This document shows, piece after piece, positions 4,371-61,792 of a stretch of 64,000 nucleotides of DNA. Position 1 is the first letter of the stretch, and each line of letters begins with the position of its first letter. A program made the translations under genes and the position numbers. Source of the DNA: Bacillus sp. F19 (GTDB taxonomy: Bacteria > Bacillota > Bacilli > Bacillales > Bacillaceae); NCBI GenBank assembly GCA_023823795.1, contig CP085710.1, positions 1,080,001-1,144,000 on the forward strand, given 5' to 3'. The notes under the pieces are model-generated. The model was given only the letters and a program-made list of their open reading frames with translations. It was not told where the DNA came from and made no database searches.

Positions 4371-4499
4371 TGTGTAAAAAGCATGAGGAATGGCAGCAGA
4401 AAGATGTTGAAAATTGTCAAAATAATTCCCAATACATGTATGAACATCCTGATTTTTCATTTATAATGAGGACAGATCAGCAAATGGAGGGTGTTAATC

Positions 4500-5705
4500 G
4501 TGGCTTTTTTACAAAAGATTGTACCTGTATTCCTACTGGCAAGCTCTATAGCTGCAGCAGGAGCAGGCAATCAGACACAGGCAGAAACAGGGTTAGTTGC
4601 AGCTGCACACGATAGTAAAGAACTTGTGTATCAAAAGAAAGAACTCCCGGAATCGATGCCCCGTTTTGTTTTTGACTCGGGACTGAACTTTGAATATCCA
4701 GATGCAATCAGAGGAATCTACGTGACGGGTCATTCCGCCGGCGGCAGTAAATTTGCACAGCTGACAAAGCTAATGGATTCAACCGATCTAAACGCAATGG
4801 TTATTGATGTGAAAGATGATTATGGAAATTTAACTTACCGCCCTGATCCATCTTCTCCTTATTACGATATTAGTCATCAATACATAAAAGATCCGCGGGC
4901 GATGCTGAAAGAACTTGAGAAAAAGAAAATCTATCCGATTGCGAGAATTGTTGTGTTTAAGGACTCGGTTCTCGCAAACAAAAAGCCGGAATGGTCTTTT
5001 AAAGATGGAAACAGCGTCTGGAAGAACGGGCGAGGAGAGTCATTTGTCAACCCATTTGTAAAAGAAGTATGGGATTACAATGTTCAGATTGCGATTGAAG
5101 CTGCAAAGCTCGGTTTTCAGGAGATTCAATTTGATTACGTCCGTTTTCCTGAAGGATTTGAGAATAAAGACGCCACGCTAAAATACAGCCACGGTGATTA
5201 TACAGATACAAAACAGGATAATGTTCAAAAGCGTGTAACAGCGGTAACGGACTTTGTTGAATACGCGAGGGAAAAATTGAAACCTTATGGCGTTAAAACC
5301 TCAGTTGATATCTTTGGATATACAGCTACATTGCCCGAAGCACCGGGTATTGGCCAAAACTTTACAAAGATCTCAAACCATGTTGATGTTATATCATCGA
5401 TGATTTATCCCAGTCACTGGACGGCCTATTTTGGAATTGAGAAGCCCGACTTAAAACCATACGAACTCATTTCAGAATATGCCAAGCTTGAAAATAAAAA
5501 GCTTGATGAGCTGAAAACAAGACCAGTGTCACGGCCATGGCTTCAGGATTTTACGGCTTCATGGCTCGGCAGCGGAAACTACAAAAAGTATGGAAAAGAA
5601 GATATAGAAGCTCAAATCAAGGCATTGAATGATCAGGGGATAAAAGAGTACCTTCTGTGGAATGCCGGAAATAACTATACAAAAGGCGTAGATTACACGC
5701 CTTAA
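4500..5705 (+). CDS. Secreted putative glycoside hydrolase (DUF4015 family)
   Basis: 401 aa. I place the start at GTG 4500 because TGGAGG (4484-4490) is 9 nt upstream. The in-frame GTG 4491 directly abuts that site. The N-terminus (MAFLQKIVPVFLLASSIAAAGAG) is a typical Sec signal peptide. The remainder matches the DUF4015 TIM-barrel glycosidase-like family: GIYVTGHSAGG near residue 75, AMVIDVKDDYGNL, and the acidic strand EIQFDYVRFPEG near residue 215. The substrate is unknown, and a cell-wall or exopolysaccharide role is inference. The gene stands alone between the opp terminator and the head hairpin of the first tandem array, which appears to serve as its terminator. Confidence 0.8.
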   Translation: MAFLQKIVPVFLLASSIAAAGAGNQTQAETGLVAAAHDSKELVYQKKELPESMPRFVFDSGLNFEYPDAIRGIYVTGHSAGGSKFAQLTKLMDSTDLNAMVIDVKDDYGNLTYRPDPSSPYYDISHQYIKDPRAMLKELEKKKIYPIARIVVFKDSVLANKKPEWSFKDGNSVWKNGRGESFVNPFVKEVWDYNVQIAIEAAKLGFQEIQFDYVRFPEGFENKDATLKYSHGDYTDTKQDNVQKRVTAVTDFVEYAREKLKPYGVKTSVDIFGYTATLPEAPGIGQNFTKISNHVDVISSMIYPSHWTAYFGIEKPDLKPYELISEYAKLENKKLDELKTRPVSRPWLQDFTASWLGSGNYKKYGKEDIEAQIKALNDQGIKEYLLWNAGNNYTKGVDYTP

Positions 5706-5751: not shown

Positions 5752-5826
5752 GAAAACAGCAAAATATAGAAGTAAACGGATACTAAATTGCCCTGCAATT
5801 TGTATCCGTTTTTTATTGTTCGGGGC
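5752..5826 (+). terminator. Array-head hairpin H1 (conserved with 36441-36513 and 61256-61332)
   Basis: Two-part hairpin: outer arms AAACGGATAC / GTATCCGTTT, inner arms AAATTGC / GCAATTT, then TTTTTATTG. It begins with GAAAACAGCAAAATA and ends with GGGGC, and the same layout is found at the two other arrays. It starts 46 bp after the glycosidase stop codon and looks like a rho-independent terminator. The flanking conservation goes well beyond what a terminator needs. Confidence 0.8.
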
Positions 5827-5840
5827 ATCAAACTTACGCA

Positions 5841-8134
5841 ATGAGTACCGAAAACCCTGGAGTAGTCCTGTTTCAGGGCAACAACCGCACCCTATGAGTA
5901 CCGAAAACCCTGGAGTAGTCCTGTTTCAGGGCAACAACCGCACCCTATGAGTACCGAAAAATCTGGAGTATGCCTGTTTCAGGGCAACAACCGGACTCTA
6001 TGAGTACCCAAAACCCTGGAGTATGCCTGATTCAGGGCAACAACCGCACCCTATGAGTACCCAAAACCCTGGAGCAGCCCTGTTTCAGGGTATCAACTGC
6101 ACTCAATGAGTATCCAAATCCAGGATTGAGCCTGAAAAGGGGAATCATATGGACTCTATGAGTACCCAAATCCAGGATTGAGCCAAAAAAGAGGAATCAT
6201 ACGCACTCAATGAGTATCCAAATCCAGGATTGAGCCTGAAAAGGGGAATCATACGCACTCAATGAGTATCCAACTCCAGGATTGAGCCTGAAAAGAGGAA
6301 TCATATGGACCCTATGAGTACCCAAATCCAGAATTGAGCCAAAAAAGAGGAATCATACGCACTCAATGAGTATCCAACTCCAGGATTGAGCCTGAAAAGG
6401 GGAATCATACGCACTCTATGAGTACCCAAATCCAGGAGTGAGCCAAAAAAGAGGAATCATACGCACCCTTTGAGTATCCAACTCCAGGATTGAGCCAAAA
6501 AAGAGGAATCATACGCACTCAATGAGTATCCAACTCCAGGATTGAGCCAAAAAAGAGGAATCATACGCACTCAATGAGTACCCAAATCCAGGATTGAGCC
6601 TGAAAAGGGGAATCATACGCACTCAATGAGTATCCAAATCCAGGATTGAGCCTGAAAAGGGGAATCATACGCACCCTATGAGTACCCAAATCCAGGATTG
6701 AGCCTGAAAAGGGGAATCAACCGCACCCTATGAGTACCCAAATCCAGGATTGAGCCTGAAAAGGGGAATCAACCGCACCCTATGAGTACCCAAATCCAGG
6801 ATTGAGCCAAAAAAGGGGAATCATACGCACTCAATGAGTACCCAAATCCAGGATTGAGCCTGAAAAGGGGAATCATACGCACCCTATGAGTATCCAAATC
6901 CAGGATTGAGCCAAAAAAGGGGAATCATACGCACTCAATGAGTATCCAAATCCAGGAGTGAGCCAAAAAAGAGGAATCATACGCACTCTATGAGTACCCA
7001 ACTCCAGGATTGAGCCTGAAAAGGGGAATCATACGCACACTATGAGTACCCAAATCCAGGATTGAGCCTGAAAAGGGGAATCATACGCACCCTATGAGTA
7101 TCCAACTCCAGGATTGACCCAAAAAAGAGGAATCATAAGCACTCAATGAGTACCCAAATCCAAGATTGAGCCAAAAAAGGGGAATCATACGCACTCAATG
7201 AGTATCCAAATCCAGAATTGAGCCAAAAAAGAGGAATCATACGCACTCAATGAGTATCCAAATCCAGGATTGAGCCTGAAAAGGGGAATCATACGCACTC
7301 TATGAGTATCCAAATCCAGGATTGAGCCTGAAAAGGGGAATCATACGCACCCAATGAGTACCCAAATCCAGGATTGAGCCTGAAAAGGGGAATCAACCGC
7401 ACCCTATGAGTACCCAAATCCAGGATTGAGCCAAAAAAGGGGAATCAAACGCACCCAATGAGTACCCAACTCCAGGATTGAGCCTGAAAAGGGGAATCAT
7501 ACGCACTCTATGAGTACCCAAATCCAGGATTGAGCCAAAAAAGAGGAATCAAACGCACCCTATGAGTACCCAAATCCAGGAGTGAGCCAAAAAAGAGGAA
7601 TCATACGCACTCAATGAGTATCCAAATCCAGGATTGAGCCAAAAAAGAGGAATCAAACGCACCCTATGAGTACCCAAATCCAGGAGTGAGCCAAAAAAGA
7701 GGAATCATACGCACTCAATGAGTATCCAAATCCAGGATTGAGCCAAAAAAGAGGAATCATACGCACTCAATGAGTATCCAAATCCAGGATTGAGCCAAAA
7801 AAGAGGAATCATACGCACCCTATGAGTACCCAAATCCAGAAGTGAGCCAAAAAAGAGGAATCATACGCACTCAATGAGTATCCAAATCCAGGATTGAGCC
7901 AAAAAAGAGGAATCATACGCACCCTATGAGTATCCAAATCCAGGATTGAGCCAAAAAAGGGGAATCATACGCACCCTATGAGTACCCAACTCCAGGATTG
8001 AGCCAAAAAAGGGGAATCATACGCACCCTATGAGTACCCAAATCCAGGATTGAGCCTGAAAAGGGGAATCATACGCACCCTATGAGTACCCAAAACCCTG
8101 AAGTATGCCTGTTTCAGAGCAACAACCGCACTCT
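5841..8134 (+). repeat. Tandem array 1: about 44 direct repeats of 52-53 bp
   Basis: Directly repeated units with no unique spacers. Five 53-bp units come first (5841-6105; ATGAGTACCGAAAACCCTGG followed later by a CAGGGCAACAACCGCACC segment). Then come 38 units of exactly 52 bp (6106-8081; begin ATGAGTACCCAAATCCAGG and end ATACGCACCCT or ATACGCACTCA). One more 53-bp unit of the outer type closes the array (8082-8134), and a decayed unit follows. The 53-bp units carry a CCCTG...CAGGG inverted repeat, and many 52-bp units carry CAGG-N6-CCTG. The period is not a multiple of 3 and stops occur in all frames, so it is not coding. The nested layout suggests that inner units were amplified within an older array. 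Confidence 0.95.
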
Positions 8135-8293
8135 ATTATTAACCCAAATTCACGATTATAAAAAGTTGGGACTAAACGATTTTTATCCTGAACAATTTCT
8201 ATAATACCTTCATTTTCAACGGGATTTTATGGTGTTCTCCTCTTAAACGGATCCTGTAAGCATATAAGGATTTTTTTACTTAAATTTGAAGTG

Positions 8294-10928: not shown

Positions 10929-11597
10929 ATGGAGATAGAACGAATTAATGAATATACCGTAAAGTTTTATATTTCATATCTTGATATAGAGGAACGCGGT
11001 TTTGACAGAGATGAAATCTGGTACAACCGCGAAAGAAGTGAAGAGTTATTTTGGGAAATGATGGATGAAGTTCACGACGAGGAAGACTTCATGGTGGAAG
11101 GGCCGCTATGGATTCAGGTGCAGGCTCTCGATAAAGGTTTAGAAGTTATTGTAACAAGAGCTCAGCTGTCAAAAGACGGCCAGAAAATTGAACTTCCTTT
11201 ATCTGAGGATAAAGTGAAGGAATTACCGGTCGATGTGAACATTGAATCAATTCTAGATCAGCACTTTAATGATGATCTTGATGATTCAGACGGTTCGGCG
11301 GAGGAAGAAGAGCAGCAGCTGCAATTCCTGATAAAATTTAATGATTTTGAACATATTATTGCTTTAGCGCAAGTTCCTGTGAGCGGCTTTGTCAATTCAC
11401 TTTACTCACTGGATAAAAACTACTACCTGTATGTAGAGTTTGATGAGCAGCATTCAGATGAAGACATTGAGAATATGCTGAGTATTATTCTCGAGTATGG
11501 ACAAGAATCACGCATGACCATTCACCGCGTCACGGAATACGGCAAGGAAATTATTGCGAATGAAGCTCTTGACGTTGTTAAGAAACATTTTAGCTAA
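10929..11597 (+). CDS. mecA: Adaptor protein MecA
   Basis: 222 aa. The N-terminal substrate-binding domain starts MEIERINEYTVKFYISYLDI. An acidic linker (about residues 115-135, DDSDGSAEEEEQQ) leads to the C-terminal ClpC-binding domain. MecA delivers substrates such as ComK to ClpCP and is needed for ClpC hexamer assembly, so it links competence with proteolysis. coiA, a competence gene, lies downstream. The ribosome site is GAAGGGAAGG. The gene is monocistronic with its own terminator. Confidence 0.96.
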   Translation: MEIERINEYTVKFYISYLDIEERGFDRDEIWYNRERSEELFWEMMDEVHDEEDFMVEGPLWIQVQALDKGLEVIVTRAQLSKDGQKIELPLSEDKVKELPVDVNIESILDQHFNDDLDDSDGSAEEEEQQLQFLIKFNDFEHIIALAQVPVSGFVNSLYSLDKNYYLYVEFDEQHSDEDIENMLSIILEYGQESRMTIHRVTEYGKEIIANEALDVVKKHFS

Positions 11598-17331: not shown

Positions 17332-17416
17332 TTTGTGACAAATTTGTGAAATGAGTTTCTATGGGTTGTCATAAGTCGACAATTTCTGATATATTATAGA
17401 TGTGAAATCAATCACA
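17332..17416 (+). promoter_or_regulatory. roxS promoter with ResD-like and Rex-like sites
   Basis: Two direct TTTGTGA elements (17332-17338 and 17343-17349, the latter TTTGTGAAA) resemble ResD binding sites. TTGTCA (17366-17371) and TATATT (17390-17395) are separated by 18 bp. TGTGA-N6-TCACA (17401-17416) overlaps the expected start and resembles a Rex operator. ResD activation and Rex repression of RoxS are established in B. subtilis. The assignment here is by motif only. Confidence 0.65.
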
Positions 17417-17518
17417 AACAAACATTTACCCCTTTGTTTGACCGTGAAAAATTTCTCCCATCCCCTTTGTTGTCGTTAAGACATACAGAAGACTCCGTAT
17501 TACCCGTGCGGAGTCTTT
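17401..17518 (+). ncRNA. roxS: RoxS/RsaE family small regulatory RNA
   Basis: About 115 nt between a promoter and an intrinsic terminator (GACTCCG / CGGAGTC then TTTTT, 17491-17517). It carries the family's C-rich seed regions: ACCCCTTTGTTTG (17428-17440) and, after GTGAAAAATTTCTCCC, ATCCCCTTTG (17460-17469). These match what I know of S. aureus RsaE and B. subtilis RoxS almost base for base. RoxS pairs with ribosome-binding sites of central-metabolism and redox mRNAs to adjust NAD/NADH balance. Its place next to spxH is the same in B. subtilis. The 5' end is inferred from the -10. Confidence 0.92.
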
Positions 17519-17551
17519 TTAAGAATAAGAAAGTAAGCGTTTTCAATTTAA

Positions 17552-29495: not shown

Positions 29496-29568
29496 TAATT
29501 ATGACTTGAAAGTTTCTTTGAGCATGGTATGATGTACATGTGAATATTTCTAAAATAATATATGAACG

Positions 29569-29663
29569 ACCGCTAGGGGAGCCCTTTTAGAAGGGCTGAG
29601 ATTGAAGTTTGCCTTCAAGACCCTCCGAACCTGATCTGGCTAAAACCAGCGTAGGGAAGTGGT
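29569..29663 (+). promoter_or_regulatory. TPP riboswitch (THI element)
   Basis: Conserved core elements are visible: CTAGGGGAGCCC ... GGGCTGAGA, then ACCCTCCGAACCTGATCTGG, and CCAGCGTAGGGAAGT. They lie 80 bp upstream of the thiamine operon. Binding of thiamine pyrophosphate is expected to favour the downstream terminator. The extra P3 hairpin TTGAAGTTTGCCTTCAA is present. Confidence 0.95.
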
Positions 29664-29682
29664 GTAAAGGTCTATTTATACA

Positions 29683-35634: not shown

Positions 35635-36408
35635 ATGAATTTATCATTAGCTGGACGCAATGTAGTCGTAATGGGCGTCGCAAACAAACGAAGCATTGCC
35701 TGGGGAATTGCCCGTTCTCTTCATACGGCAGGAGCACGTCTTATTTTTACATATGCAGGTGAACGCCTTGAAAAATCAGTGCGCGATTTAGTTGAAACGC
35801 TTGATCGCAATGATTCGATTGTCCTTCCTTGTGATGTAACAAATGATGCTGAAATTGACACTTGTTTTGAAGCGATTAAAAATGAAGTAGGCGTTATTCA
35901 TGGAATTGCACATTGCATCGCGTTTGCACATAAGGAAGAATTGAGCGGAGAATACATGAATACAACCCGCGACGGATTTTTGCTTGCTCACAATATCAGC
36001 TCTTATTCACTGACAGCTGTGGCAAAAGCTGCAAGAGGCTTGATGACAGAGGGCGGAAGCATTGTGACACTCACATATCTTGGCGGAGAAAGAGTCCTTC
36101 CTAATTACAACGTTATGGGAGTGGCAAAGGCATCACTTGATGCAAGTGTGAGATACTTGGCAAGCGATTTAGGAAAAGACGGCATTCGCGTGAATTCAAT
36201 TTCTGCCGGCCCAATCCGTACGCTTTCTGCTAAAGGAATCAGCGATTTTAACTCCATTCTGAAAGATATCGAAGAACGCGCGCCGCTGCGCCGTACAACA
36301 ACTCCGGAAGAAGTTGGGGATACAGCACTTTTCTTGTTCAGTGACCTTGCAAGAGGGATGACTGGAGAAAATCTACATGTAGACTCCGGATATCATATTT
36401 TAGGTTAA
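35635..36408 (+). CDS. fabI: Enoyl-[acyl-carrier-protein] reductase (NADH) FabI
   Basis: 257 aa, short-chain dehydrogenase fold. VVMGVANKRSIAWGIARSLH (residues 10-29) is the FabI-type cofactor loop. SIVTLTYLGGERVLPNYNVM leads into the catalytic YNVMGVAK (Tyr-x6-Lys). It reduces trans-2-enoyl-ACP in the last step of each fatty-acid elongation cycle and is the triclosan target. TTAGGAGG precedes the ATG. A FapR-type operator sits upstream. The array-head hairpin H2 follows the stop and probably terminates the transcript. Confidence 0.96.
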   Translation: MNLSLAGRNVVVMGVANKRSIAWGIARSLHTAGARLIFTYAGERLEKSVRDLVETLDRNDSIVLPCDVTNDAEIDTCFEAIKNEVGVIHGIAHCIAFAHKEELSGEYMNTTRDGFLLAHNISSYSLTAVAKAARGLMTEGGSIVTLTYLGGERVLPNYNVMGVAKASLDASVRYLASDLGKDGIRVNSISAGPIRTLSAKGISDFNSILKDIEERAPLRRTTTPEEVGDTALFLFSDLARGMTGENLHVDSGYHILG

Positions 36409-36440: not shown

Positions 36441-36513
36441 GATAACAAAATACAGAAGAAAACGGGTAATGAATTGCACAGCAATTTTTGCCCGTTTTTT
36501 TGTTGTTTGGGGC
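36441..36513 (+). terminator. Array-head hairpin H2
   Basis: Outer arms AACGGGTA / TGCCCGTT (closing with one U-G pair) and inner arms AATTGC / GCAATT around ACA, then TTTTTTTGTTG and GGGGC. The preceding CAAAATACAGAAGAAAACGG agrees with H1 and with H3 read on the minus strand. It lies 33 bp after the fabI stop. Confidence 0.8.
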
Positions 36514-36528
36514 GAGTATTGGCAAGCT

Positions 36529-36892
36529 ATGATTTCCTAAATACAGGAAAGAGCGTGTTTAGAGGACTCAAAGGCCCTGTATGATTCTCCAAATCCAGGA
36601 TAGAGGGTGATTAGAGAACTCAAAGGCCCTGTATGATTCCCCAAATCCAGGATAGAGAGTGTTTAGAGGACTCAAAGGCCCTGTATGATTCCCCAAATCC
36701 AGAATAGAGAGTGTTTAAAGGACTCAAAGGCCCTGTATGATTCCCCAAATCCAGAATAGAGCGTGTTTAGAGGACTCAAAGTCCCTGTATGATTCCCCAA
36801 ATCCAGGAAAGAGCGTGTTTATAGGACTCAAAGGCTCGGTATGATTCCCAAAAATCCAGGAAAGAGCGTGTTTAAAGGAATCAACTACCAAC
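36529..36892 (+). repeat. Tandem array 2: seven direct repeats of 52 bp
   Basis: Units start ATGATTCCCCAAATCCAGG and contain GAGGACTCAAAGGCCCTGT at the end. Unit starts are 36529, 36581, 36633, 36685, 36737, 36789 and 36841. The last unit is degenerate. Period and unit layout agree with array 1, with CCCAAATCCAGGAT at the same unit position, so it is the same family. No ORF runs through it. Confidence 0.93.
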
Positions 36893-38428: not shown

Positions 38429-38456
38429 AAGAACCACGGGTTTTCCGTGGTTCTTT
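38428..38456 (+). terminator. cotO terminator hairpin, left copy of a 29-bp duplication
   Basis: Perfect stem-loop AAAGAACCACGG / CCGTGGTTCTTT around GTTTT. An identical 29-bp copy lies at 39996-40024 on the other side of the IS element, so it is a target-site duplication. Originally it probably was the shared bidirectional terminator of cotO and cotJC. Confidence 0.85.
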
Positions 38457-39995
38457 CAGATTGTAGACAAAAGGCATTCGGATGAACTCTATCCGAATGC
38501 TTTTTGTCATTTCTGGGGCTAATTTGATGTTTGTAGGCCTATTCGTTGACTATTTTTATACCGCTTTCGCTGGCTTCCATGTCCAGGATGCCAACTTTTT
38601 CAAGTTCATGGCAGCAAAAGTAAGCATCGCCTGCATGGACAATTTTTTGAGTCCTCTCAACGTTGTCCAACGCATACCATGCTTTTCTTTTGCATCTGCA
38701 AAGACACGCTCTATCGTTTCTTTGCGTTTTGCATAAATTGTTTTGTTCTCTTCTGTATGACGAAGGTGTTCAGCTTCATCTAAGTATTCTTGCCAGAGAT
38801 GCCTTTCAATCAATTTCTGATGATTTTGGCTCTCCGTACATTGGCTTAGGAATGGGCAATTTTCACAAACCTTCGGATCGGAAGAGTATTGTCTGTATCC
38901 TTTTTTCGTAGTAGTTCTGTAAGGAAGCACTTGATCGTGCGGGCATATGTAACAATCAAAATGTTCGTCATACACATAATCACTTTTCTTGAAAAATCCA
39001 TCTTTTGTTTTTGGCCGTGTATAAGGAAAAACCGGACGAATTTCTTTTTCGTTCAAATAGTGAGCAAGAGCAGGGTTCTTGTAAGCAGCATCGGCAGCAA
39101 CAGCAACAGGTTTCTTGTGAAGCTCAGTTACTTGATCAAGTAGAGGCTCGAATATTGCACTGTCGTGCACGTTACCAGGCGTAACGATTGTCCCCAGAAC
39201 AAATCCTTTTCGTCAGAGGCTGTGTGAAATGAGTAAGCGAACTGTTTTGTTCTTTCATCTTTTACGTAATAGCCACTTTCCGGATCCGTCGTACTTTCTT
39301 TAATCACTTTCTCTTCCGGTTCAAATTTATCTGGGGAAAAGGCTTTTTCCGTTTTCTTCGCGGTCTAGATTGAGTTCGTTTTGGAGCCTTTCCTCATATG
39401 ATTTCGTTTCTTTTCGTACGATCTTTTCTGATACTTTCGTTTATTAGCACTAGCCTTTACGTGAGTTGAATCAATAAATACCTGTTCTCCATTGACCAGT
39501 TTCTTATCAATCGCCTCTTTTAAGATGCGGTAAAATATCTGCTCAAACAGATCTGTATCCTTAAAGCGCCGTTCATAGTTTTACCGAATGTTGAGAAGTG
39601 GGGCACCTTGTCATGAAAACCAAAACCCAAAACCAACGGTAGGCTAAGTTGGTTTCAATCTCTTCAATGGTTCTTCTCATGGATCGAATACCGAAAAGGT
39701 ATTGGATGAAGGTCATTTTAATCAATATGACCGGATCAATACTTGGACGACCTCGATCTGCGGAATAGACTTTCTCTACTAATGGATAGATGAAAGAAAA
39801 ATCGAGAGCTTGTTCAATTTTACGGACTAAGTGATCTTCCGGCACCAACTGTTCAAGTGTAATCATTTCTAGTTGATCGCGATTCATTTGATTATTTTTA
39901 GACAACATCCAAATCACCTCTGTATTGTTCTATTTTCATTATATAAAAAAACTGCCGACAAATCCCCCAAAAAGGGGGGATTTGTCGACAGTCTG
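38457..39995 (-). mobile_element. Decayed IS1182-family insertion sequence
   Basis: 1539 bp, in the size range of the family. The terminal inverted repeats are CAGATTGTAGACAAA at the left and CAGACTGTCGACAAA read inward from the right (13 of 15 identical). It is flanked by identical 29-bp stem-loops (target-site duplication). Inside each end is another hairpin: GCATTCGGAT...ATCCGAATGC at the left and GACAAATCCCCC...GGGGGGATTTGTC at the right. The transposase on the minus strand is broken by frameshifts, so the copy is not expected to move by itself. Confidence 0.9.
38556..39917 (-). pseudogene. IS1182-type DDE transposase, frameshifted
   Basis: The N-terminal part (39573-39917) reads MLSKNNQMNRDQLEMITLEQ and includes the typical ADRGRPSIDPVILIKM motif. 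The middle (about 39170-39570), reachable only by changing frame, gives KVPHFSTFGKNYERRF and GEQVFIDSTHVKASANKRKY with the first catalytic Asp. The C-terminal part (38556-39170) gives VAADAAYKNPALAHYL, the Cys cluster CENCPFLSQCTES and IERVFADAKEKHGMRW with the catalytic Glu. At least two frameshifts separate these blocks, so no full-length product is made. The recognisable order and content give the family call. Confidence 0.88.
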
Positions 39996-40024
39996 AAAGA
40001 ACCACGGGTTTTCCGTGGTTCTTT
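39996..40024 (-). terminator. cotJ operon terminator hairpin, right copy of the 29-bp duplication
   Basis: Identical to 38428-38456. It serves the cotJABC transcript coming from the right and ends 7 bp before the cotJC stop. Confidence 0.85.
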
Positions 40025-60605: not shown

Positions 60606-61228
60606 ATGATCCCCGAAACCACTAGATCTATGATTTTGAGTACTCAAAGGAAGCGTATGATTCCTCAAAAAAGTCAACTCCATGGTTTTGAGTACTCAAA
60701 GAAGGTGTATGAGTACTCAAAAAAGCCAACTCCATGTTTTTGAGTACTCAAAGGAGGTGTATGAGTACTCAAAAAAGCCAACTCCATGGTTTTGAGTACT
60801 CAAAGTAGGTGTAGGAGTACTCAAAAAAGTTAATTCCATGTTTTTGAGTACTCAAAGGAGGTGTATGAGTACTCAAAAAAGCCAACTTCAGTGTTTTGAG
60901 TACTCAAAGAAGGTGTAGGAGTACTCAAAAAAGCCAACTTCAGTGTTTTGAGTACTCAAAGAAGGTGTAGGAGTACTCAAAAAAGCCAACTTCATGGTTT
61001 TGAGTACTCAAAGTAGGTGTAGGAGTACTCCAAAAAGTCAATTCCATGTTTTTGAGTACTCAAAGGAGGTGTATGAGTACTCAAAAAAGCCAACTTCAGT
61101 GTTTTGAGTACTCAAAGAAGGTGTAGGAGTACTCAAAAAAGCCAACTTCAGTGTTTTGAGTACTCAAAGAAGGTGTAGGAGTACTCAAAAAAGCCAACTC
61201 CATGTTTTTGAGTACTCAAAGGAAGCGA
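60606..61228 (-). repeat. Tandem array 3: about 12 repeats of 52 bp with paired palindromes
   Basis: Units start at 60606 (51 bp), 60657, 60709, 60761, 60813, 60865, 60917, 60969, 61021, 61073, 61125 and 61177. Each has two GAGTACTC or near copies. They lie 31 bp apart in the unit and 21 bp from the next unit, and many extend to TTTTGAGTACTCAAA. Read on the minus strand, unit positions agree with array 1 (GAGTAC-C-CAAA near the unit start, CATAC near the end), so the array is the same family in inverted orientation. The hairpin H3 is at its minus-strand 5' side. Confidence 0.92.
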
Positions 61229-61255: not shown

Positions 61256-61332
61256 TCACAACAAAACAACGGATACCAATTGCACAGTGCAATGTAGTAC
61301 CCGTTTTCTTCCGTATTTTGCTGTTTTCTCGC
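61256..61332 (-). terminator. Array-head hairpin H3 (minus strand)
   Basis: On the minus strand: GAAAACAGCAAAATACGG, arms AACGGGTAC / GTATCCGTT (one G-U in this orientation only) and inner arms ATTGCA / TGCAAT around CTG, then TTTTGTTG. It lies 29 bp past the yjcF stop and is the counterpart of H1 and H2. Confidence 0.78.
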
Positions 61333-61360: not shown

Positions 61361-61792
61361 TTAAGCTTTTATTTCTTTTACCATCGTAACATGCGGAATG
61401 CCTGCATCTAAAAATGTTTCTTTTGAAATGGTGTTATAGCCAAGCTTCTCATAGAAAGGCTCTGCATGTGTTTGTGCATTCAGCTTTAGTTTTTGCATTT
61501 CCTTTGAAGCAGCAATCTCTTCAAGTTTTTCCATGATGATTTTGCCTGCGCCTTTAGAGCGGTAATCAGGAAGCACGCAAATTCGTTCAATTTTGCCGAT
61601 GCCGTTCAGGATGCGAAAACGTCCTGCACCAACTGGCTTGTCGCCGTCATATAAAACAACGTGAGAAGCTTCTCTTTCAAACTGATCGATTTCTTCTTCT
61701 TCAGGCACATGCTGCTCTTCTACAAATACTTTTGTTCGGACATCATAGGCTTCCTGCAATTCTTCATCTGACTTTACAATTCTTGCGATCAC
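61361..61792 (-). CDS. yjcF: GNAT family N-acetyltransferase YjcF
   Basis: 143 aa from GTG 61790-61792, directly after the yjcG stop. It has the ElaA/YjcF-type GNAT core: VRTKVFVEEQHVPEEEEIDQ near residue 18, ICVLPDYRSKGAGKIIMEKL (motif A) near residue 71, and HAEPFYEKLGYN. The substrate is unknown. Third in the yjcH-yjcG-yjcF direction. Hairpin H3 appears to end this transcript. Confidence 0.88.
   Translation of the reverse strand: MIARIVKSDEELQEAYDVRTKVFVEEQHVPEEEEIDQFEREASHVVLYDGDKPVGAGRFRILNGIGKIERICVLPDYRSKGAGKIIMEKLEEIAASKEMQKLKLNAQTHAEPFYEKLGYNTISKETFLDAGIPHVTMVKEIKA

What the first reader, a model, noticed from the sequence alone, without database searches (positions are those of the whole stretch)
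5752..8134. Hairpin-led 52-bp repeat arrays: a three-locus family, largest copy
About 44 units fill the gap after the glycosidase gene, and two other loci in this window (36529-36892, 60606-61228) have the same 52-bp period. They share unit landmarks (GAGTAC-CC-AAA near the start, GG-A-TCATAC or its equivalent near the end) and the same hairpin at the head. The arrays have no spacers, no ORF and no transposase. Three independent arrays keeping one period and one polarity in 64 kb points to a genome-wide element with a mechanism or function. Options are a protein-binding array (52 bp is about five helical turns), a transcribed repeat RNA, or a parasite of terminators. I cannot name a described family that fits. 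The function is inference.
Basis: partly seen in the sequence, partly recalled or inferred. Interest (0 to 1): 0.9.

Follow-up and report, generated by a model that had tools for sequence, protein, structure and literature searches.

The report
Fixed-length 52-bp bacterial satellite arrays
Between their genes, this bacterium and its relatives carry many tandem DNA arrays whose repeat unit is nearly always 52 bases (five turns of the double helix) even when the repeat sequences look unrelated, which hints at a DNA-wrapping or DNA-phasing protein that measures length rather than reading sequence.

Summary
Window 5843-8136 holds 44 units (five of 53 bp, 38 of 52, one terminal) behind a terminator-like hairpin; 36528-36892 and 60606-61228 are homologous. 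At least 19 such arrays lie in this genome; 327 of 353 extracted units are exactly 52 bp. The hairpin stands beside 7 of the 19. At orthologous sites copy number and unit sequence turn over.

The larger result lies outside the window. Sampled stretches of eight genomes show the same period in arrays that mostly do not resemble the window family: 20 of 23 arrays with period 25-100 bp are 52 or 53, 11 of them in one sister species. In a model-free lag count of non-coding DNA, 52 (40 bins) and 104 (33) dominate. A unit's two inverted motifs do not covary, against a maintained hairpin; composition is phased at 10.4 bp.

Best reading: satellite-like arrays whose length is set by helical phase, probably for a wrapping protein, still unknown. 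Main rival: a neutral satellite with inherited length.

The parts
5766..5820 (+). Head of array 1: terminator-like hairpin (AAACGGATACTAAATTGC..GCAATTTGTATCCGTTTTTT), T-run towards the array
   Evidence: downstream of the + strand ORF 4491-5705
5843..6107 (-). Array 1, five 53-bp units of another type (unit strand as in the 52-column model)
6108..8083 (-). Array 1, 38 units of exactly 52 bp; the type is also the consensus type of the arrays at 662k (L033), 1285k (L037), 1378k (L038) and 3024k (L043) of the same contig
8084..8136 (-). Array 1, last unit, again of the first type
36451..36507 (+). Head of array 2, behind the FabI gene (35635-36408)
36528..36892 (-). Array 2, 7 units (six of 52 bp, one of 53)
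60606..61228 (+). Array 3, about 12 units of 52 bp; in most units the palindrome GAGTACTC occurs twice, 31 and 21 bp apart
61258..61315 (-). Head of array 3, behind the - strand ORF 61361-61792

Best explanation
These are bacterial satellite-like DNA arrays whose monomer length, five turns of B-DNA, is held by a constraint on the double helix. Each unit carries protein sites or bendable segments on one face of the DNA, and an array lets an oligomeric, probably wrapping, chromosomal protein bind in register. Units are copied and replaced quickly by recombination, within arrays and apparently between loci, so sequence drifts while the 52-bp register does not. Arrays persist mainly away from promoters, at gene 3' ends, where they do least harm or help to insulate neighbouring genes. 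Shown: a near-constant period across arrays of dissimilar sequence, turnover at orthologous sites, independent evolution of the two inverted motifs in the window family, 10.4-bp phasing of composition. Inferred: the protein, the wrapping, exchange between loci and any benefit to the cell.
For: Period: 20 of 23 arrays of period 25-100 bp in 1.6 Mb from 8 genomes are 52 or 53 (array 1 counts twice there, as its 53- and 52-bp parts, and 5 of the 20 are of the window family). Lags 52 and 104 tower over all others from 12 to 130. 15 of 19 arrays outside the window family score no better against it than z 2 over shuffled units. Motifs inside the unit: inverted complementarity (9.35 of 14 pairs against 3.2-4.7 when slid) without covariation (re-paired null 9.36; the longer-side pairing 8.15 against 7.99), so the sites evolve separately. 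W/S power peaks at 10.4 bp in the window family (3.22 over 43 related arrays) and in 11 other families (2.49 against 1.34 in 2012 control windows, p 0.006). Of 61 arrays with a called ORF on each side, 25 lie between convergent and only 5 between divergent ORFs. Proteins of the right kind exist in Bacillales: RemA rings bind poorly conserved repetitive DNA and are thought to wrap it, and LrpC-type proteins were proposed to bind in a nucleosome-like manner (PMC8481266, passages read).
Against: No protein was identified. The constraint on length inside arrays looks weak: 24.8 substitutions per indel in arrays against 17.3 in flanks, the latter from only 7 indels (the array figure is depressed where the consensus was a base short). 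A W/S peak at 7.4 bp (2.3) is nearly as high in the 11 other families, in part because of one of them (9.49), and control DNA itself is somewhat raised at 10.4 bp. Lags 21 and 42 are only 7 and 4 bins, and some of the 21/42-bp arrays lie in open frames, so could be coding. The 31/21 motif spacing is not seen in the two G007 arrays I counted by eye (L177 and L182:15780, about 25/27). Four of the 19 other arrays do show weak similarity to the window family (z 2.2-3.8). Copy number ranges from about 1 to 44, and sites in some species have none, so no single array is needed.
Confidence: 0.47

Rival explanations
1. A neutral, fast-evolving satellite. All 52-bp arrays descend from one ancestral array; recombination homogenises and moves units, sequence similarity decays, and the length is simply inherited because indels are rare. 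No function.
For: Turnover and copy-number change at orthologous sites. Four of 19 arrays outside the window family have faint similarity to it (z 3.8, 2.8, 2.6, 2.2). 51- and 53-bp variants exist. The excess of indels in flanks over arrays is small and rests on 7 indels.
Against: The other 15 of 19 arrays show no such similarity (z below 2) while the period is unchanged. Composition is phased at the helical repeat.
Confidence: 0.3
2. A copying machine with a ruler: an unknown enzyme duplicates or re-inserts 52-bp segments regardless of sequence, so the length reflects the mechanism of formation.
For: The same length in dissimilar sequences. The window family and the L082 family each occur at several loci in one genome.
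Against: No enzyme was linked to the arrays (only six ORFs beside the window arrays were checked, and none is a recombinase); 53-bp blocks and mixed 52/53 arrays occur. A Y1 (RAYT-type) transposase was not found in the own genome.
Confidence: 0.1
3. A transcribed repeat RNA whose unit is a hairpin.
For: Inverted arms in many units; some arrays fold much better than shuffles, for example L091:4657 (z -6.5 on one strand), L182:15284 (-5.2 on one strand) and L182:15780 (-4.5 and -4.2).
Against: No covariation between the arms of the window family (not tested in the others); many arrays have z near 0 or positive; where a head is present its terminator would be expected to stop the upstream gene's transcript before the array; one G000 array has directly repeated motifs (L155:13357); Rfam has no match at the window arrays.
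Confidence: 0.07
4. REP/BIME-type elements moved by a Y1 (RAYT) transposase.
For: Between genes, seldom between divergent ones, inverted motifs in tandem.
Against: PF01797 finds no Y1 transposase in the own genome, while it rings in 51 of 61 genomes of the order sample and in 5 of 14 controls. No other genome of the genus was in that search.
Confidence: 0.03

Closest known systems
Eukaryotic satellite DNA with nucleosome-sized monomers (recalled, not searched)
   Same: Monomer length nearly constant while monomer sequences differ between families; concerted evolution; fast turnover; length thought to follow a wrapping protein
   Different: Bacterial, between genes, 52 bp, arrays of up to 44 units at many loci rather than megabase blocks; no histone-like ruler known here
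REP/BIME elements with RAYT transposases (PMC2817692: start of abstract in a listing; PMC3733652: passages)
   Same: Extragenic, inverted motifs in regular arrays
   Different: No Y1 transposase found in this genome; near-exact period across dissimilar families; up to 44 units
Pneumococcal BOX elements boxA-boxB(n)-boxC (recalled; one search returned nothing)
   Same: A fixed head followed by a variable number of repeat modules
   Different: Head on only 7 of 19 arrays; unit 52 bp, up to 44 copies; no defined 3' module established
CRISPR (recalled) and TIGR arrays (TIGR: PMC12045711, passages read)
   Same: Regular tandem arrays; TIGR has two alternating repeats per unit
   Different: No spacers (units 84-95% identical to their array's consensus); TIGR units are 36 nt with two 9-nt spacers near a Tas gene
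RemA and LrpC target DNA in Bacillus subtilis (PMC8481266, passages read)
   Same: Poorly conserved, repetitive, periodic sites for ring or octamer proteins thought to wrap DNA
   Different: The RemA sites described are promoter-upstream with a 10-bp repeat (7 protected plus 3); no 52-bp array is mentioned in the passages read

Membership tests
REP/BIME with RAYT | Y1 (RAYT) transposase in the genome | tested here: not met
   0 matches of PF01797 in G000
REP/BIME with RAYT | Palindromic units in extragenic space | tested here: met
   for the window family (inverted motifs, imperfect)
CRISPR | Unique spacers between repeats | tested here: not met
   contiguous 52-bp units, no spacers
TIGR array | About 36-nt unit with 9-nt variable spacers | tested here: not met
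   geometry from PMC12045711
TIGR array | Neighbouring Tas (Nop-domain) gene | not tested
   no search for Nop-domain proteins was made
Known structured RNA (Rfam 15) | Match at gathering score | tested here: not met
   only RsaE and TPP in the window, neither at the arrays
BOX-like modular element | Constant 5' module, variable number of middle repeats, constant 3' module | tested here: inconclusive
   head and units yes; head missing at 12 of 19 arrays; a 3' module was looked at by eye only
Helically phased protein-binding array | Period a whole number of turns and sites not maintained as a hairpin | tested here: met
   period and phasing; window family only
Helically phased protein-binding array | A protein that binds in that register | not testable with these tools
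   needs pull-down or ChIP

The most novel reading that the evidence does not exclude
A new class of bacterial satellite DNA defined by length, not sequence: a chromosomal wrapping protein with a five-turn pitch fixes the monomer at 52 bp (perhaps with a 21/42-bp ladder in related genera), in the way that nucleosomes are thought to fix eukaryotic satellite monomers, and lineage-specific sequence families rise and are replaced on this fixed register.
Probability: 0.33. Interest if true: 0.93.

Novelty: categorically new. Interest (0 to 1): 0.82.

Why it matters
Bacterial repeats are classified by sequence. A class kept by its length would be a physical readout of how DNA is packaged in these cells, much as satellite monomer length is thought to be in eukaryotes. 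It makes a testable prediction (a protein with a 52-bp pitch, sensitive to half-turn insertions) and supplies natural, fast-evolving arrays at many loci as probes of bacterial chromatin, recombination and concerted evolution.

Tried and rejected
Hairpin RNA or ssDNA unit: rejected as the main basis. RAYT/REP: no Y1 transposase found in the own genome. CRISPR and TIGR: no spacers. A known RNA family: none at the arrays. The hairpin as an obligatory head: rejected, 7 of 19. A narrow hairpin pattern found only 2 sites and was replaced by a structure model. 'R1 absent, so array absent' was wrong: three species without window-family hits (G003, G004, G007) have other arrays (G007, G004; G003 by homology to a G007 array only), and in G005 divergent window-family arrays were found. 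The model search scores only 150 candidates a genome and BLAST listed 100 matches, so loci may have been missed. Indel-to-substitution ratio: weak and partly spoiled by short consensus units. The 31/21 motif spacing as a universal rule: not seen in two G007 arrays counted by eye. Mild clustering of the 19 loci (gap CV 1.41 against 0.93, p 0.015) was not pursued.

Literature: nine term searches listed no paper whose title or abstract start describes such arrays; three returned nothing. The library is open-access only and matches words, not meaning. Listings only were seen for all papers except PMC12045711, PMC8481266, PMC10899789 and PMC3733652, of which passages were read.

Full report
WHAT IS THERE. 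Window 5843-8136 is an uninterrupted array of 44 units: five of 53 bp, 38 of exactly 52 bp and a final unit of the first type. The homologous arrays at 36528-36892 (7 units) and 60606-61228 (about 12 units, opposite strand) align with it to one 52-column unit. Each of the three has a terminator-like hairpin on the side of the preceding gene. The neighbours that were checked are ordinary: a DUF4015 putative glycosyl hydrolase, two GNAT-type acetyltransferases, FabI, a polyketide-cyclase-like protein and a YetF-type protein.

GENOME-WIDE FAMILY. The window lies at 1.080-1.144 Mb of a 5.09-Mb contig (C1) of a 5.59-Mb genome. BLAST with four units (100 matches listed, perhaps a cap), then with array 3, finds 19 arrays, all on C1; 19 is a lower bound. 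Of 353 units extracted, 327 are exactly 52 bp and the rest 50, 51 or 53; the extraction accepted only 48-56 bp and extended each match to the model's ends, which favours 52. Within an array, units are 84-95% identical to its own consensus, while consensuses differ between arrays.

THE HEAD. Twelve strong hairpin heads exist in the genome (E at most 1.8e-8). Seven stand within 300 bp of one of the 19 arrays. By eye the other five are followed by one or two decayed units, but a profile search at 12 bits finds a unit beside only one of them, L078. In 36 of 42 head loci pooled over five species (12 from G000 and the 30 best-scoring fetched loci, orthologues included) the head starts within 68 nt of a same-strand open-frame stop (no control was run). 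I infer that it acts as that gene's terminator. Twelve of the 19 arrays have no such head.

SISTER SPECIES. Model R1 finds the unit family in G000, G001 and G006, and three weak matches in G002, of 8 genomes of the genus, and in 3 of 81 genomes of the family at a stricter threshold and filter. The head model also finds G002 and G005, but not G003, G004 or G007. The one named-genome scan, for the head pattern, gave 13 stretches, all from Metabacillus idriensis DSM 19097 or a record labelled Peribacillus frigoritolerans F-D2; identical printed stretches identify these with G002 and G005.

TURNOVER. At orthologous places with flanks mostly 88-97% identical, the arrays differ. Array 1 has 44 units in G000 and 13.6 in G006, of another unit type (flanks 97%). 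The L032 place has 9.7, 21.1 and 14.9 units in three species (flanks 93-97%); L033 has 10.1, 23.5 and 13.9 (flanks 71-95% by piece). Not all change: L035/L089 have 13.1 and 13.6, L041/L088 have 18.7 and 16.0. Behind fabI (array 2) the counts are 6.8 (G000), 18.2 (G001), 6.1 (G002), 7.6 (G005) and, by eye, one remnant with another head version (G006). G004 and G007 show neither head nor array there by eye; for G003 the right flank was not matched in the fetched stretch. Array 1 and L038 have one unit type at both ends and another in the middle, L041 at one end; the middle type of array 1 is also the consensus of L033, L037, L038 and L043. Exchange between loci is the simplest reading, but it is inference.

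THE PERIOD IS SHARED BY DISSIMILAR SEQUENCES. I sampled 400 kb at random from G000 and from G007, and stretches at positions picked by hand without knowledge of repeats from six further genomes (200 kb each of G004 and G058; 100 kb each of G009, G078, G063, G001). Of 40 arrays with at least 2.8 copies and period 10-200, 17 have period 52, 3 have 53, and 3 have 104 or 105; among the 23 with period 25-100, 20 are 52 or 53. Of these 20, 11 come from G007, which gave no hit for the window family or the head; 5 are of the window family, array 1 counted twice because its 53- and 52-bp parts are separate rows and the random draw happened to include it. G000 also holds a second family (L082) at seven loci and another short array (L155:13357-13530). 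The L177 family gives 24, 24 and 17 matches in G007, G003 and G002 and none in the other five.

Scored against the window family in every rotation and strand, 15 of 19 such arrays stay below z 2 over shuffled units; L202 (3.8), L182:3372 (2.8), L182:15284 (2.6) and L184 (2.2) are above. Five arrays of G001, G002 and G005, tested alongside, are clear relatives of the window family (z 6.7-11.7). Similarity among the other families was grouped by eye only. A lag count that uses no repeat model, on non-coding DNA of all samples including ten other families, gives 40 bins (of 400 bp) at lag 52, 33 at 104, 8 at 51, 5 at 53, 7 at 21, 4 at 42, 6 at 103, 5 at 105, and at most 3 elsewhere between 12 and 130; one array can fill several bins.

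HOW FAR IT EXTENDS. One 52-bp array turned up in 200 kb of G058, another genus. None was found in 100 kb each of G009, G063 and G078, nor in 40 kb from each of ten other families, where a few 21/42-bp arrays were seen, one of them outside open frames (L234:3706). These samples are small, so absence there is weak evidence.

DNA SITE OR HAIRPIN? The two motifs of a window-family unit are inverted copies: 9.35 of 14 positions pair, against 3.2-4.7 when slid. If they were held together as a stem, the arms of one array should match each other better than the arms of different arrays. They do not (real 9.35, re-paired 9.36; 26 consensuses left of 43 after removing near-duplicates). Single-strand folding of 66 arrays is on average only slightly better than shuffles, with wide scatter and a few strong cases, the strongest z -6.5. 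This fits two separately evolving double-strand sites in the window family; the other families were not tested for covariation.

HELICAL PHASE. 52 bp is five turns at 10.4 bp. W/S composition of the units peaks at 10.4 bp in the window family and, averaged by family, in 11 others: 2.49 against 1.34 in 2012 control windows (p 0.006; 0.008 allowing for the choice of frequency). Arrays whose consensus is not 52 letters were left out. A peak at 7.4 bp (2.3) is nearly as high, raised in part by one family. The evidence for phasing is therefore good on period and moderate on composition.

CONTEXT. 61 of 66 arrays had a called ORF on each side: 31 between co-directional, 25 between convergent, 5 between divergent ORFs. 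ORFs were picked by length, those overlapping an array were excluded beforehand, orthologues are counted separately, and no background rate was computed. One array (L180) is spanned by an open frame, and 10 contain one of 74-128 codons. With those limits, arrays lie between genes and seldom between divergent ones.

MECHANISM AND RIVALS. I favour a length constraint on double-stranded DNA, most simply an oligomeric wrapping protein (RemA and LrpC are the sort of protein meant; PMC8481266, passages read), acting on satellite-like arrays that recombine fast. The chief rival is a neutral satellite with an inherited length. Against my reading: the indel constraint inside arrays is only slightly stronger than in flanks, no protein is known, and individual arrays are dispensable over evolutionary time. 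On checking, the 21/42-bp ladder proved thinner than I had first written (few bins, some in open frames), so I lowered the best explanation from 0.50 to 0.47 and the novel case from 0.35 to 0.33, and raised the neutral rival from 0.28 to 0.30.

NOVELTY. None of the families tested fits (membership table). Nine text searches of an open-access library turned up no description; this does not exclude one in papers not held or worded otherwise. The likeness to nucleosome-length satellites and to BOX elements is from memory.

Noticed in passing
L170:4672-5063 (G000), L194:9844-10106, L197:12685-13162 and L198:5835-6067 (G004), L188:14217-14705 and L193:916-1217 (G007): A different tandem repeat of about 120-124 bp, similar by eye between species of the genus; period not a whole number of helical turns.
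   Followed up: no
L225:7209-7412 and 11364-11448, L212:1573-1671, L084:960-1060, L234:3706-3820: Arrays of period 42 or 21 (4 and 2 helical turns) outside open frames, in related genera, another family and G000; similar arrays at L195, L229, L230 and L245 lie in open frames.
   Followed up: partly
window 38450-40000: An insertion-sequence-like stretch with 12 further near-identical full-length copies in this genome, plus partial ones.
   Followed up: no
window 17402-17520 and 29565-29674: RsaE/RoxS small RNA and a TPP riboswitch (Rfam).
   Followed up: no
L141 and other NZ_SMZY loci: The record labelled Peribacillus frigoritolerans F-D2 shares identical stretches with G005, which is placed in the same genus as the window genome and M. 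idriensis; probably mislabelled.
   Followed up: partly
L033:3288-3577 and L037:3217-3506: Two arrays of the same genome share a 97.6% identical 290-bp stretch running from the array end towards the next gene: a duplicated array-plus-leader segment.
   Followed up: no
L082:103-1064 and six other G000 loci: Second 52-bp family: seven loci in G000, one strong and one short match in G006, only two short fragments in G001, none in the other five genomes: recent spread or loss.
   Followed up: partly
window 8249-8278; L079, L082, L142, L146, L152: A second terminator-like hairpin seems to follow the array or its remnant; a possible 3' module, seen by eye only.
   Followed up: no
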